Assembly: GCF_018141005.1 (NCBI RefSeq)
Contig: NZ_CP046582.1
Location: forward strand, 310,001 to 374,000
Length of the DNA stretch: 64,000 nucleotides
Reading direction: 5' to 3'
DNA from: Erwinia sp. E602
Lineage (GTDB): Bacteria > Pseudomonadota > Gammaproteobacteria > Enterobacterales > Enterobacteriaceae
Within the stretch, counting starts at the first letter, position 1, and every line of letters starts with the position of its first letter. A program made the translations under genes and the position numbers. The notes under the pieces were generated by a model. That model saw only the letters and a program-made list of their open reading frames with translations, made no database searches and was not told where the DNA came from. Of the stretch, positions 54,929 through 58,398 are shown one piece after another.

Positions 54929-55048
54929 AACCGTCCGTACCGGGCTGCGACCGCGTTGCTGCGGCCCTTCGCGATGCTCACATACTGATGTATGCTCCGC
55001 TCGCTCAGCGCCTTGCGCCTTGTCTCGCTCCGGTACGATCGGTTTTTT
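54927..55048. repeat. 122-bp imperfect palindrome after tauD, possible terminator
   Basis: Arms 54927-54943 (AAAACCG-TC-CGTACCGG) and 55030-55046 (CCGGTACG-AT-CGGTTTT) pair at 15 of 17 positions. The right arm runs into TTTTTT on the plus strand, so it can end tauABCD transcripts. A smaller CATAC-TGAT-GTATG hairpin lies inside. Confidence 0.8.
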
Positions 55049-55054
55049 CACTTG

Positions 55055-55088
55055 CCGTCCGTACCGGGCTGCGACGGCGTCGCTGCGG
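55055..55088. repeat. Second copy of the left-arm sequence
   Basis: 34 bases starting CCGTCCGTACCGGGC match 54931-54964 at 32 positions in the same orientation. It lies directly before the 3' end of the nrtR gene, so a truncated second element adjoins the 122-bp palindrome. Confidence 0.85.
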
Positions 55089-55093
55089 TGCGA

Positions 55094-55819
55094 TCACTCC
55101 TCACTCATCAGGTTGCGCGAGAAATGATGAATGTCGGCGCCAGGCTTAAGGCGGTAAAGCTTCGCCTTACGGGCACCGGTAGCGACGCTCTCGCCGGTTT
55201 CTTCAAACATCTCTGAGGCGTCAAAGCGACGGATCAGGCTTTTACGCTGCACCGGGCGGGCGAGGATCGTCTCAGTGACCTCCTGTAACTGGGTCAGGGT
55301 AAAGGCGGCGGGCAGGCAGTACACCGGCAGCAGGGAGTAGAGCGTTTTCTGCCGCAGCCGCTGCAGCGCGTCGGCAACGATCTGCTGGTGGTCAAAGGCG
55401 ATGTCGCTGCGCTGTGCCAGCCCGGCCACCGGCTGCCACCGTGCATCGCTGACGTCGTTACTGCCGGCAGAACAGGCTTCGGCGGCGATCAGCGCGTACC
55501 ACGCCGTGGTCAGGCTCCAGCCGCGCGGGTCTCGGTCGGGCCCCGAGTAGGTGGCCAGCTGCTCGAGCCACGGCGGATTGACGCCGGTCTTTTCCCGCAG
55601 CTTGCGCAGCGCGGTGTCGCGCGTGGATCCATCCTGCAGCAGGTCGATAAATCCCCCCGGTAACCCCCAGAGGCCGCGCTGCGGATGCCTGGCGCGCTGT
55701 ACCAGCAGCACGCACAGCTGCTGCTGCCAGAGGCTGAACAGCACGCTGTCGACGGTGACGATTGGGGACGGATAGCGTGAAGCGTCGTACTGCGCCAGAT
55801 ACTCGTGTTCTGATGACAT
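55094..55819 (-). CDS. nrtR: NrtR-type Nudix transcriptional regulator of NAD metabolism
   Basis: 241 residues. N-terminal Nudix-like domain (~15-145; WGLPGGFID then ALRKLREKTGV) followed by a C-terminal winged helix (~155-235; LTQLQEV...RKSLIRRFDASEMF). The Nudix box is degenerate: the catalytic RE-x-x-EE pattern reads RK-x-x-EK and the upstream Glu is not in register, so it probably senses ADP-ribose or a related ligand rather than hydrolysing it, as known for NrtR. It is divergent from the prs-like/nadV operon with three TGTC-N5-GACA dyads between. One dyad lies 19-31 bases upstream of its own ATG, pointing to autorepression. Confidence 0.88.
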   Translation of the reverse strand: MSSEHEYLAQYDASRYPSPIVTVDSVLFSLWQQQLCVLLVQRARHPQRGLWGLPGGFIDLLQDGSTRDTALRKLREKTGVNPPWLEQLATYSGPDRDPRGWSLTTAWYALIAAEACSAGSNDVSDARWQPVAGLAQRSDIAFDHQQIVADALQRLRQKTLYSLLPVYCLPAAFTLTQLQEVTETILARPVQRKSLIRRFDASEMFEETGESVATGARKAKLYRLKPGADIHHFSRNLMSEE

Positions 55820-55837
55820 AGCATTACCTGCAGGAAG

Positions 55838-55850
55838 TGTCGCTCGGACA
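55838..55850. promoter_or_regulatory. Candidate NrtR operator 1 (nrtR side)
   Basis: TGTC-GCTCG-GACA, extended by one base pair on each side to GTGTC...GACAC. Located just upstream of the nrtR start codon. Confidence 0.65.
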
Positions 55851-55970
55851 CATTACCAGCGGCGGAGTTATCATTCAATCTTTCCACCCGCGCTGAAAAC
55901 TTTATCACTTTTAAAATCAATTAGTTAAACATAATTTTTGTGCCGGTGTGATATTTCGCTTGTCAATTAA

Positions 55971-55983
55971 TGTCTCTTGGACA
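55971..55983. promoter_or_regulatory. Candidate NrtR operator 2 (prs/nadV side)
   Basis: TGTC-TCTTG-GACA, flanked by AA on the left and ATT on the right. It also forms the left part of a perfect outer inverted repeat: 55963-55974 with 56003-56014, arms of 12 bases. Confidence 0.7.
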
Positions 55984-55993
55984 ATTATATAAA

Positions 55994-56006
55994 TGTCCCT
56001 GTGACA
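55994..56006. promoter_or_regulatory. Candidate NrtR operator 3 (prs/nadV side)
   Basis: TGTC-CCTGT-GACA, 23 bases centre-to-centre from operator 2 (about two helical turns), 25 bases before the prs-like start codon. The AT-rich TATATAAA between the two dyads may be part of the promoter, so binding would block RNA polymerase. Confidence 0.7.
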
Positions 56007-56030
56007 TTAATTGAGTTGAAGGAGTCGGTG

Positions 56031-56906
56031 ATGATGAAACTGCAGTTAACGCTTGATGGTCAGGATGTGGCGCTGGAAAGCGGACGTTTTCCAGACGGTG
56101 CGGTCTGGGAGCGCGTCAGCGGGCCGCTGGATCCACAGGCGGAAAGCCTGACGCTGCGTGCCAGCGCGATGCAGACCCTCGATGACCTGATGCGGGTCGC
56201 CCAGGTGCTCGACGCGGTACGTCAGCGCTGCCTGCTGCGTCAGACCCGGCTTGAGCTGCCGTGGCTGCCCTACGCCCGACAGGACCGCACAATGCGTGAC
56301 GGCGACAGTTTCGCCCTCAGGGTGTTTGCCGGTTTTCTCAATCAGCTGCGCTTTGATCGGGTGGTGGTGCTGGATCCGCACAGCGACGTGGCTGCCGCCG
56401 TGGTTGACCGTATGGTCACCATTCCCCAGCACCGCTGCCTGATCCACAGCCGTTCGCTGCTGGCCGCCCTTGAGCAGGGCATGATGCTGATTGCCCCGGA
56501 CGCCGGCGCGCTGAAAAAGGTGCATGCGCTGGCGCAACAGGTGAAGGCAGCTGAGTACGGCATTCTCGGCAAGCATCGTGATATCGCCAGCGGTGCGCTG
56601 AGCGGTTTTGAACTGCTGAAAGGTGACGTGGCGGGCAGGGACGTGCTGATTGCCGACGACCTGTGCGATGCCGGTGGCACCTTTATCGGATCGGCGGCGG
56701 TATTGCGGGCCGCCGGCGCGCGCTCGGTCAGCCTGTACGTTACCCACGGTCTGTTCAGTAAAGGCGTTGAGCACCTGCTGAGCCAGGGCATTGACCGCAT
56801 CTGGACCACCACCTCGCTGGGCGGCGCTGAACCGGCGCAGGAAGGCGTTGAACGCATTGATATCGCGACCATTTACCGCAGTGAAGGAGCAAACCATGCA
56901 AATTAA
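56031..56906 (+). CDS. Ribose-phosphate pyrophosphokinase-like protein of the NadV operon
   Basis: 291 residues from ATG 56031 (GAAGGAG 8 bases upstream); the frame opens earlier across the operators. Diverged paralogue of PRPP synthetase: PWLPYARQDR at ~77-86, DRVVVLDPHSD at ~109-119 in place of the usual DLHA-Q-GFF block, a flexible-loop Lys/Arg pair in GKHRD (181-184), and the PRPP-loop-like VLIADDLCDAGGTF (205-218). It overlaps nadV by 11 bases. The simple reading is a dedicated PRPP supply for NadV; a role in making ADP-ribose pyrophosphate, known for related phage NAD-reconstitution enzymes, is an alternative. Confidence 0.75.
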   Translation: MMKLQLTLDGQDVALESGRFPDGAVWERVSGPLDPQAESLTLRASAMQTLDDLMRVAQVLDAVRQRCLLRQTRLELPWLPYARQDRTMRDGDSFALRVFAGFLNQLRFDRVVVLDPHSDVAAAVVDRMVTIPQHRCLIHSRSLLAALEQGMMLIAPDAGALKKVHALAQQVKAAEYGILGKHRDIASGALSGFELLKGDVAGRDVLIADDLCDAGGTFIGSAAVLRAAGARSVSLYVTHGLFSKGVEHLLSQGIDRIWTTTSLGGAEPAQEGVERIDIATIYRSEGANHAN

Positions 56907-58398
56907 TCCGATTCTGGCTATCGATGGTTACAAAACCTCGCACCGTGAGCAGTACCCGCAGGGGACAAACCGGGTTTATTCCAACTTTACGCCGCGCGGT
57001 AAGCGCTATTTTCAGTCGCCGCTGGCGGATGAGTCGCTGGTGTTCTTTGGTCTGCAGGGATTTTTGCAGTGGTTTATGGTCGACCTGTTTAACCAGCAGT
57101 TCTTCGCCCAGCCGGAAGAGCAGGTGGTGGGGGAGTATCAGCAACTGATGGACAGCTACCTCGGGGAGAACAGCGTCAGCGTTGAGCACATCCGTGCGCT
57201 GCACCGCCTTGGCTATCTGCCGCTGGAGATCAAAAGCCTGGACGAAGGCAGCAAAGTGCCGATGAAGGTGCCGGTGCTGACCCTTACCAATACCCTGGGC
57301 GAGTTCTTCTGGCTGGTGAATTACCTCGAGAGCGTGATGTCGGCCGAGCTGTGGAAATCCTCCACCACCGCCACCGTCGCGCACCACTATCGCCAGATCT
57401 GCCAGCGCTGGGCCGAACGCACCTGTGACGACGTGGCGCACCTTGATTTTCAGTGCCATGACTTTTCGTTCCGCGGCATGTCCGGGGTGCACGATGCGGC
57501 ACAGTCCGGCGTCGGCCATCTGCTGAGCTTTACCGGCACCGACAGCCTGCCGTCGATTCTCTATGCCCAGCGCTACTACCGTCCGGCGGCAGGCACCTTT
57601 ATCGGCGGCAGCATCCCTGCCACCGAGCACAGCGTAATGTGCATGGGCGAGGAGCAGGGCGAGATCGCCACTTTCCGTCGCCTGCTGACCGAGCTCTATC
57701 CGCGCGGGCTGGTTTCGATCGTGTCCGATACCTGGGACTACTGGAAGGTGCTGACCGGGTACAGCCGTGAGCTTAAACCGGAAATCATGGCGCGTGAGGG
57801 GCGGCTGGTGTTCCGCCCGGACAGCGGTGACCCGGTCGAAATACTGTGCGGCAGCGGCGACGACCAGGATCGCGACCCTGCGCGCAGCGCGCAGCAGAAA
57901 GGCTCGGTGGAGGTGCTGTGGGAGATCTTTGGCGGCACGGTCAATGCCAGAGGCTATAAGGTGCTCGACCCGCACGTCGGCCTGATTTACGGCGATTCGA
58001 TTACGCTGGAACGGGCGAACGAGATCCTCAGCCGGCTGGAGGCAAAAGGCTTCGCCAGCAGCAACGTGGTGTTCGGCGTCGGCTCATATACCTACCAGTA
58101 CCACACGCGTGATACCTTCGGCTTCGCGATGAAAGCAACCTATGGGGAAGTGAACGGCGTGGGGCGGGAGATCTTTAAACAGCCGAAAACCGATAATGGC
58201 CTGAAAAACTCCGCGCGTGGCCTGCTGCGGGTAGAGAAAGACCGGCAAGGGAACTATCGTCTGCTGGATGGCCAGAGCTGGCAGCAGGAACAGGGGGGAG
58301 AGCTGAAAACCCGCTTCCTGAACGGTAAACTGCTCAACGTTGAGGATCTGACCACGCTGCGCCAGCGGCTGGCGGCGGAATTAAGGCGGGAACGCTGA
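56896..58398 (+). CDS. nadV: Nicotinamide phosphoribosyltransferase
   Basis: 500 residues from ATG 56896 (AAGGAG 7 bases upstream). NAMPT family: joins nicotinamide to PRPP giving NMN, a one-step NAD salvage route absent from E. coli K-12. Key residues align with human NAMPT: His245 in SIPATEHSVM, Asp278 in SIVSDTWDYWKV and Arg307 in FRPDSGDPVE; SGVHDAAQSG and TGTDSLPS are also conserved. Coupled to the prs-like gene and controlled, by inference, by the NrtR dyads upstream. Confidence 0.92.
   Translation: MQINPILAIDGYKTSHREQYPQGTNRVYSNFTPRGKRYFQSPLADESLVFFGLQGFLQWFMVDLFNQQFFAQPEEQVVGEYQQLMDSYLGENSVSVEHIRALHRLGYLPLEIKSLDEGSKVPMKVPVLTLTNTLGEFFWLVNYLESVMSAELWKSSTTATVAHHYRQICQRWAERTCDDVAHLDFQCHDFSFRGMSGVHDAAQSGVGHLLSFTGTDSLPSILYAQRYYRPAAGTFIGGSIPATEHSVMCMGEEQGEIATFRRLLTELYPRGLVSIVSDTWDYWKVLTGYSRELKPEIMAREGRLVFRPDSGDPVEILCGSGDDQDRDPARSAQQKGSVEVLWEIFGGTVNARGYKVLDPHVGLIYGDSITLERANEILSRLEAKGFASSNVVFGVGSYTYQYHTRDTFGFAMKATYGEVNGVGREIFKQPKTDNGLKNSARGLLRVEKDRQGNYRLLDGQSWQQEQGGELKTRFLNGKLLNVEDLTTLRQRLAAELRRER

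What the first reader, a model, noticed from the sequence alone, without database searches (positions are those of the whole stretch)
55820..58398. NrtR-controlled NAD salvage module with three matching dyads
The sequence shows a NrtR-type Nudix regulator divergent from a prs-like/nadV operon. Three copies of TGTC-N5-GACA lie in the 211-base gap: one in front of nrtR (55838-55850) and two 23 bases apart in front of the operon (55971-55983, 55994-56006), the latter embedded in a perfect 12-base outer inverted repeat. NrtR regulation of NAD genes is established; the exact operator and its cooperative double site here are my inference. It sits in a block inserted between yheT and yheS.
Basis: partly seen in the sequence, partly recalled or inferred. 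Interest (0 to 1): 0.72.

Follow-up and report, generated by a model that had tools for sequence, protein, structure and literature searches.

The report
ADP-ribose-sensing switch for NAD rebuilding
This plant-associated bacterium carries a small gene set that appears to rebuild the vital coenzyme NAD from its breakdown products, controlled by a repressor of a family known to let go of DNA when one of those products, ADP-ribose, builds up.

Summary
In detail: nrtR, the divergent two-gene operon and three TGTC-N5-GACA dyads are at the stated places. In 12 aligned regions (own included) the 23-bp operon-side pair is kept in 12 and the exact nrtR-side dyad in 10. In 23 further nrtR-adps-namat loci, GTC-N5-GAC is about 43-fold enriched upstream of the operon; it occurs upstream of 1 of 31 nadV/Nampt genes that lack nrtR beside them. 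These are very probably NrtR operators.
The enzyme naming needs correcting. The 'nadV' carries the adenine clamp of phage Namat (GSYTYQYHTRD plus the loop Arg); its best PDB matches are Namat. The 'prs' has the Adps letter at all 11 positions that separate Adps from Prs. The operon looks like chromosomal NARP1 (ADP-ribose -> ADPR-PP -> NAD+), not PRPP/NMN salvage. Of 25 bacterial clamp-bearing loci, 25 have adps and 24 nrtR; of 31 clamp-less loci read, none has either. A 501-bit homologue of Shewanella NrtR, whose DNA binding ADP-ribose suppresses, heads such an operon. Proposed logic: the repressor senses the pathway's substrate. No bench test was made. TIR/SIR2 domains show no association in the genus, and one jumbo phage pairs a NrtR-like protein with a Nampt-type enzyme.

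The parts
55094..55819 (-). nrtR: Nudix-related repressor of the ADP-ribose-responsive type, 241 aa; degenerate Nudix box; C-terminal winged helix
   Evidence: Pfam NUDIX + NrtR_WHD; best PDB hit 3gz5/3gz6 (Shewanella NrtR), 223 bits; alignment
55838..55850 (.). operator O1 (TGTC-N5-GACA), at the inferred start of the nrtR promoter (autoregulation)
   Evidence: exact in 10 of 12 aligned regions, GGTC-N5-GACA in 2 Serratia; does not reach the 21-bp AT-flanked pattern at 3 mismatches
55850..55878 (-). inferred nrtR promoter, by eye: -35 TTGAAT (55873-55878), 17 bp, extended -10 TGGTAATGT (hexamer 55850-55855)
   Evidence: partly kept columns in alignment; not listed by the promoter scan
55915..55927 (+). 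IHF-like element AATCAATTAGTTA midway between O1 and O2 (hypothesis; consensus recalled)
   Evidence: best match with 0-1 mismatch in 12 of 12 regions, 4 perfect; 99-102 nt from the nrtR start in 10 Erwinia, 82 and 109 in the 2 Serratia
55960..55988 (+). inferred operon promoter TTGTCA-17-AATTAT
   Evidence: one of 2 found; shuffles give mean 0.9; TTG and the -10 region kept in alignment
55971..55983 (.). operator O2, inside the -35/-10 spacer
55994..56006 (.). operator O3, over the inferred transcription start
55963..56014 (.). 52-bp palindrome holding O2 and O3 (26-nt arms, 85%)
56031..56906 (+). adps (prs-like by general models), putative ADP-ribose pyrophosphate synthetase, 291 aa
56896..58398 (+). 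namat (nadV by general models), putative nicotinamide ADP-ribose transferase, 500 aa; starts 11 nt inside adps
57004..57006 (+). Arg37 of namat, aligned with SPbetaL1 Namat Arg40 of the selectivity-clamp loop
58081..58113 (+). selectivity-clamp helix signature GSYTYQYHTRD (residues 396-406)

Best explanation
This is a chromosomal NAD+ reconstitution pathway (NARP1 type: adps-namat) under an ADP-ribose-responsive NrtR repressor. At rest, NrtR dimers sit on O2 and O3 (in the promoter spacer and over the start of adps-namat) and on O1 (start of nrtR), silencing the operon and limiting nrtR. When NAD+ is split by a glycohydrolase or by ADP-ribosyl-transfer turnover, ADP-ribose and nicotinamide rise. 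ADP-ribose binds the Nudix domain and NrtR lets go. Adps then turns ADP-ribose + ATP into ADPR-PP, and Namat joins ADPR-PP to nicotinamide to give NAD+ directly. Consumption of ADP-ribose lets NrtR rebind, so the repressor reads the substrate of the pathway it controls. Shown here: gene identities by sequence marks, operator conservation, and co-occurrence. Inferred: enzyme activities, ADP-ribose as effector of this NrtR, promoter positions, repression.
Against: No bench data. Namat also makes NMN from PRPP in vitro (PMC12774641), so PRPP use is not excluded. Adps identity to SPbetaL1 Adps is low (29%, against 25% to own Prs), and SPbetaL1 has a very long branch in the tree. At one of the 11 positions the own genome's Prs also carries the Adps letter. 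Acinetobacter L032 has nrtR but no GTC-N5-GAC site upstream of adps. Outside Gammaproteobacteria the link is weak: of 10 plasmid loci read (of 52 records hit), 9 have adps and 2 a NrtR, one of those again Acinetobacter. A jumbo-phage locus (L238) has a NrtR-like protein about 2.4 kb before a Nampt-type enzyme, with no adps, so NrtR-like proteins are not tied to Namat everywhere. Effectors vary in the family: NAD for Corynebacterium NdnR, arabinose for Bacteroides AraR.
Confidence: 0.74

Rival explanations
1. Classical salvage: a Prs-like enzyme supplies PRPP and a NadV (Nampt) makes NMN from nicotinamide, under NrtR.
For: NCBIfam names (TIGR01251 140.5 bits over cut-off 113; PRK09198 600 bits over 405); Namat keeps PRPP-dependent NMN synthesis in vitro; the own genome lacks a PncA hit over cut-off, so another use of nicotinamide would help.
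Against: The own genome has a separate Prs. Nampt-type and Haemophilus-type NadV lack the clamp and stand without adps in 31 of 31 loci read, while every one of 25 clamp-bearing bacterial loci has adps. Discriminating letters favour Adps.
Confidence: 0.15
2. A stable genomic trace of a phage or mobile counter-defence gene pair that happens to have acquired NrtR, serving to survive NAD-depleting defence or toxins rather than homeostasis.
For: Two phage loci read carry the same gene pair without nrtR (L030, L031); cassette present in 9 of 36 genus genomes at one site.
Against: Same place between tauD and yheS in 9 further Erwinia loci (L080-L087, L025) and 2 Serratia. No association with TIR_2 or SIR2_2 in the genus: either domain in 6 of 9 nrtR+ and 16 of 27 nrtR- genomes, and neither in the own genome. 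Other NADase families were not searched.
Confidence: 0.15
3. The dyads are operators of another regulator (for example NadR or a nucleoside regulator), and NrtR acts elsewhere.
For: Seven of the 11 other dyads in the genome lie between the long ORFs, one of them 54 bp before a cytidine deaminase gene.
Against: The motif follows nrtR: present in 22 of 23 nrtR+ loci, 1 of 31 loci without it, and 0 at the one nrtR-less adps-namat locus.
Confidence: 0.04

Closest known systems
NARP1 (Adps + Namat), phage SPbetaL1 and Paenibacillus foliorum, PMC12774641
   Same: Gene pair and order, Namat catalytic and clamp letters, Adps diagnostic letters
   Different: Here with a divergent nrtR and three operators; the SPbetaL1 and GAP52 loci have no NrtR hit. 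No regulator is described in the sections I read of that paper; 'nudix' occurs 0 times in its main text
NrtR of Shewanella oneidensis (PDB 3gz5/3gz6/3gz8)
   Same: Nudix + winged helix, impaired Nudix box, full-length match; family with ADP-ribose-responsive members
   Different: Own protein is 47% identical to L091's NrtR, a near-copy of the Shewanella one; its regulon is given in print as nicotinamide utilization (PMC3223726, passage), not as an ADP-ribose pathway
HdNadV of Haemophilus ducreyi pNAD1 (9ke8/9keo) and Nampt
   Same: Fold and NMN-side catalytic residues
   Different: Clamp aromatics missing (GAQTYQRNTRD on pNAD1), no adps, no nrtR (L226)
Ribose-phosphate pyrophosphokinase (Prs)
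   Same: Fold family by sequence models, ARQDR and DD...GT motifs
   Different: 0 of 11 Prs consensus letters at discriminating positions; separate branch

Membership tests
NARP1 / Namat | Clamp-helix motif GSX1-Phi1-X2-Phi2-X3-Phi3-TRD with aromatic X | tested here: met
   GSYTYQYHTRD; Phi3 is His instead of the usual Asn/Val
NARP1 / Namat | Stacking Arg/Lys/Tyr in the clamp loop | tested here: met
   R37 aligns with SPbetaL1 R40
NARP1 / Namat | NAM/ribose residues D13 Y15 F189 R192 D215 R306 D308 of SPbetaL1 Namat | tested here: met
   all identical; they are shared with Nampt too, so they do not discriminate
NARP1 / Namat | Adps gene upstream | tested here: met
   11-nt overlap; diagnostic letters
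NARP1 / Namat | NAD+ from ADP-ribose, ATP and nicotinamide | not testable with these tools
   needs enzyme assay
NrtR | Nudix-like domain plus NrtR winged helix | tested here: met
   both over gathering score; NCBIfam NF050029 scores 222 bits, under its cut-off of 400
NrtR | Impaired Nudix signature | tested here: met
   RKLREKTGV where active enzymes have REUXEEXGU (rule)
NrtR | Conserved palindromic operator at NAD genes | tested here: met
NrtR | Release from DNA by ADP-ribose | not testable with these tools
   only inferred from S. oneidensis NrtR
Nampt/NadV (PRPP type) | GMGG/AxLLQ-type helix as in the Nampt-type rows, no adps partner | tested here: not met
Prs | Prs letters at positions that separate Prs from Adps | tested here: not met
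   0 of 11 consensus letters; the broad model TIGR01251 is matched over cut-off

The most novel reading that the evidence does not exclude
ADP-ribose is a dedicated intracellular signal in these bacteria: the NrtR class first characterised in Shewanella serves as the substrate-sensing switch of host-owned NARP1, so that NAD+ loss by glycohydrolysis triggers its own repair. The nicotinamide-utilization regulon of Shewanella NrtR is then really an ADP-ribose-to-NAD+ repair circuit, and many phage copies are regulator-free versions of it. A conserved IHF-like bend between O1 and O2/O3 may let NrtR loop the two promoters.
Probability: 0.5. Interest if true: 0.8.

Novelty: new variant of a known kind. 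Interest (0 to 1): 0.68.

Why it matters
PMC12774641 leaves open what bacterial NARP1 is for. A repressor whose family has ADP-ribose-responsive members, beside 24 of the 25 clamp-bearing bacterial copies found here, suggests a testable answer: NAD+ repair induced by its own breakdown product. It would also explain why NrtR senses ADP-ribose rather than an NAD precursor, and it warns that 'prs-nadV' annotations can hide a different pathway.

Tried and rejected
Regulon elsewhere: 11 further TGTC-N5-GACA sites in the genome. Four lie inside long ORFs and 7 between them. Of 8 neighbouring ORFs scanned, 7 had a family hit and none is a clear NAD gene (one weak NAD+ synthase-model hit, 58.7 bits against cut-off 479). 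None of the 11 reaches the AT-flanked 21-bp operator at 3 mismatches; neither does O1.

Nicotinamidase loss as the reason for the cassette: the own genome and G027 lack PncA over cut-off, but the 8 other nrtR+ genus members have it and G027 has no nrtR, so there is no link.

TIR/SIR2 co-occurrence: no association.

Looping with constant phase: the O1-O2 start distance is 132-134 bp in 10 Erwinia regions but 115 and 143 bp in the two Serratia, so phasing is not kept.

Weak 'NrtR' hits beside four Nampt-type genes (L117, L124, L125, L128) are CTP_transf_like + NUDIX proteins of NadM type and were not counted as NrtR.

NrtR in phages: 60 records have a match, 10 over at least 80% of the query. 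I read five that are not Acinetobacter (L237-L241): none has clamp-bearing Namat or adps within the stretch. L237 (phage G) has a 'nicotinate phosphoribosyltransferase' that is not a Namat hit; L238 has a Nampt-type hit (216 bits) and a weak second Nudix hit, which speaks against an exclusive NrtR-Namat tie.

NrtR_WHD family in the class sample: 60 of 369 genomes, of which 3 (G000, G041, G097) have clamp-bearing Namat beside it, so the family is much wider than this role.

Rows dropped: of 28 Nampt-type places found, 23 were fetched with flanks; 5 (G358, G424, G350, G108, G246) were not. L023, L024, L026, L027 and L089 duplicate other loci and were left out. L025's start was called too far upstream, so it counts 1 instead of 3 sites.

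Full report
OBSERVATION. The gap between nrtR (55094-55819, minus) and the next gene (56031, plus) is 211 bp and holds the only three TGTC-N5-GACA sites of the window. The operon-side pair sits in a 52-bp palindrome with 26-nt arms, 85% complementary, whose outer 12 bases are perfect by reading. The whole-window expectation is 0.80 sites.

CONSERVATION. The protein search found nrtR in 9 of 36 genus genomes, own included, and in named records of Erwinia persicina (two), E. aphidicola, E. rhapontici, Erwinia sp. 198 and two Serratia. In the 12 distinct intergenic regions aligned (own, eight unnamed Erwinia, E. aphidicola, two Serratia), the 23-bp pair is present in 12. The nrtR-side dyad is exact in 10, and the two Serratia have GGTC-N5-GACA. 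The stretch GACAATTATATAA(A/G)TGTC between the pair is the same in all 12, in a gap that is otherwise diverged.

PROMOTERS. The scan finds TTGTCA-17-AATTAT at 55960-55988, one of two promoter-like hits in 3 kb where shuffles give 0.9. O2 then lies in the spacer and O3 over the start. For nrtR I propose by eye TTGAAT-17-extended -10 TGGTAATGT on the minus strand, with O1 at the start; the scan does not list it. An IHF-like AATCAATTAGTTA (consensus recalled) lies at 55915-55927 (2 in the window, 0.57 expected). The best match between O1 and O2 has 0 or 1 mismatch in 12 of 12 regions, 4 of them perfect. It lies 99-102 nt from the nrtR start in the 10 Erwinia and at 82 and 109 in the Serratia. Single-sequence shuffles reach a 1-mismatch match in 21 to 70 of 500, so only the steady place in Erwinia and the perfect copies speak for it.

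MOTIF ACROSS FAMILIES. In 23 further nrtR-adps-namat loci, GTC-N5-GAC occurs 61 times in 8,280 bp upstream of adps, in 22 of 23 loci, against 46 times in 267,107 bp of the rest of the same loci. Nine of the 23 are congeners; by the same per-locus counts the 14 others hold 36 sites, in 13 of 14 (L032, Acinetobacter, has none). Control: 31 clamp-less nadV/Nampt loci hold 1 site in 11,145 bp. Site number and spacing vary: 23 bp in Erwinia, Serratia and L090, 32-36 bp in L076 and L103-L105, 54-55 bp in L101/L102, 86 bp in L091/L092, 58 and 87 bp in L075. In the own genome the AT-flanked 21-bp operator at up to 2 mismatches is found only at O3 and O2, so the regulon is probably local.

ADPS. The first enzyme is 29% identical to SPbetaL1 Adps, 38% to the GAP52 phage protein and 25% to the own genome's Prs. 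Eleven positions are conserved in at least 18 of 20 Adps-type rows, with a different letter conserved in at least 18 of 19 Prs. The window protein and SPbetaL1 both have the Adps letter at all 11; at one of them the own genome's Prs also has it. The tree separates the two groups with 100/100, but SPbetaL1 has a very long branch.

COUPLING. Of 25 distinct bacterial loci with the clamp (X1 and X3 aromatic or His; L078 has GA for GS), 25 have adps beside it and 24 have nrtR. The exception L100 lacks nrtR in the 9.9 kb fetched (the contig ends about 1.3 kb beyond adps) and also lacks operator sites. Eleven of the 25 came from NrtR queries or the phage collection; among the 14 found by the Namat query in 369 class and 394 order genomes, 13 have nrtR. 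Three gene orders occur: divergent, nrtR-adps-namat, and adps-namat-nrtR. The 31 clamp-less loci comprise 8 of family f9 with GxG(A/S)(Q/R)TYQ helices and 23 Nampt-type; none has adps or a true NrtR beside it. Phage loci L030 and L031 have adps and no NrtR hit. Of 10 plasmid loci read out of 52 records hit, 9 have adps (L224 only at 34 bits) and 2 have NrtR (Acinetobacter, Persicobacter); L221 and L222 have weak Nudix hits (24 and 31 bits). H. ducreyi pNAD1 has neither gene and lacks the clamp aromatics. NrtR-like proteins in phages are not tied to Namat: 5 of 60 records read, none with Namat or adps, and one (L238) with a Nampt-type enzyme.

EFFECTOR. PMC4666351 (passages) states that ADP-ribose suppresses DNA binding of NrtR from S. 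oneidensis and Synechocystis, while the Corynebacterium member answers to NAD and the Bacteroides AraR to arabinose; effector choice therefore varies in the family. PMC6800001 (passages) reports release of the Mycobacterium smegmatis NrtR by ADP-ribose, at 50 mM. The NrtR of L091, directly upstream of adps-namat, matches the S. oneidensis protein at 501 bits over its whole length with an almost identical winged helix. So a near-copy of the ADP-ribose-responsive NrtR heads a Namat-type operon. That S. oneidensis itself has this arrangement I did not test; that Rodionov 2008 described prs and nadV as its targets is recalled.

PRIOR PRINT. No paper in the held open-access library contains both NARP1 and NrtR, and none holds NrtR with nadV and prs. 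Six hold NrtR and 'nicotinamide phosphoribosyltransferase'; I saw these in the listing only, except passages of PMC9503650, which note Nudix-type regulators sensing ADP-ribose in other conflict systems. Osterman 2024, Rodionov 2008 and Huang 2009 are not held, so the link may exist in print outside the library.

LOCATION. The cassette lies between tauD and yheS in the window, in 9 further Erwinia loci (L080-L087, L025) and in both Serratia. In 17 of 30 Erwinia yheS loci read, tauD is the nearest queried gene to yheS, within 203 bp in 15. It behaves as a discrete unit gained or lost at one site. L090 has the cassette with neither tauD nor yheS in the stretch.

PHYSIOLOGY. The own genome lacks PncA over cut-off, but the other 8 nrtR+ members have it. 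TIR_2 or SIR2_2 occurs in 6 of 9 nrtR+ and 16 of 27 nrtR- genus genomes, and neither in the own genome. A defence-recovery role therefore has no support here; steady NAD+/ADP-ribose repair or protection from NADase toxins remain open.

VERDICT. The enzyme part should be re-read as an ADP-ribose-driven NAD+ reconstitution operon. Confidence in the combined mechanism is 0.74.

Noticed in passing
own genome G000 and G027: No nicotinamidase PncA over the model cut-off, while 34 of 36 genus genomes have it.
   Followed up: partly
L100 (G427): adps-namat with clamp but no nrtR seen and no GTC-N5-GAC sites: a natural control.
   Followed up: partly
L079, L093-L099, L226: Haemophilus-type NadV lacks the clamp aromatics and any adps; it looks like a Namat-branch enzyme that lost or never had ADPR-PP use.
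   Followed up: partly
L238 (uncultured jumbo phage LR756504.1): NrtR-like protein, a weak second Nudix hit and a Nampt-type enzyme within 5 kb: a possible phage NAD pathway with its own regulator.
   Followed up: no
L032 / CAKLQF020000015.1, filed as Acinetobacter phage MD-2021a: The annotated neighbourhood (AraC regulator, TauE/SafE, methyltransferase) looks like a bacterial chromosome contig, not a phage.
   Followed up: no
L221 Curtobacterium plasmid: adps, TerD, namat, NADAR, and further on a NUDIX gene: an ADP-ribose-handling cluster without clear NrtR.
   Followed up: no
window 54929-55090: Two near-copies of a CCGTCCGTACCGGGCTGCGAC repeat downstream of tauD (read).
   Followed up: no
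L077 (G052): NrtR at 209 bits with no adps or namat hit in the 8.3-kb contig.
   Followed up: no
L230 (G000:C2:1636082): TGTC-N5-GACA 54 bp upstream of a cytidine deaminase gene; probably unrelated.
   Followed up: no
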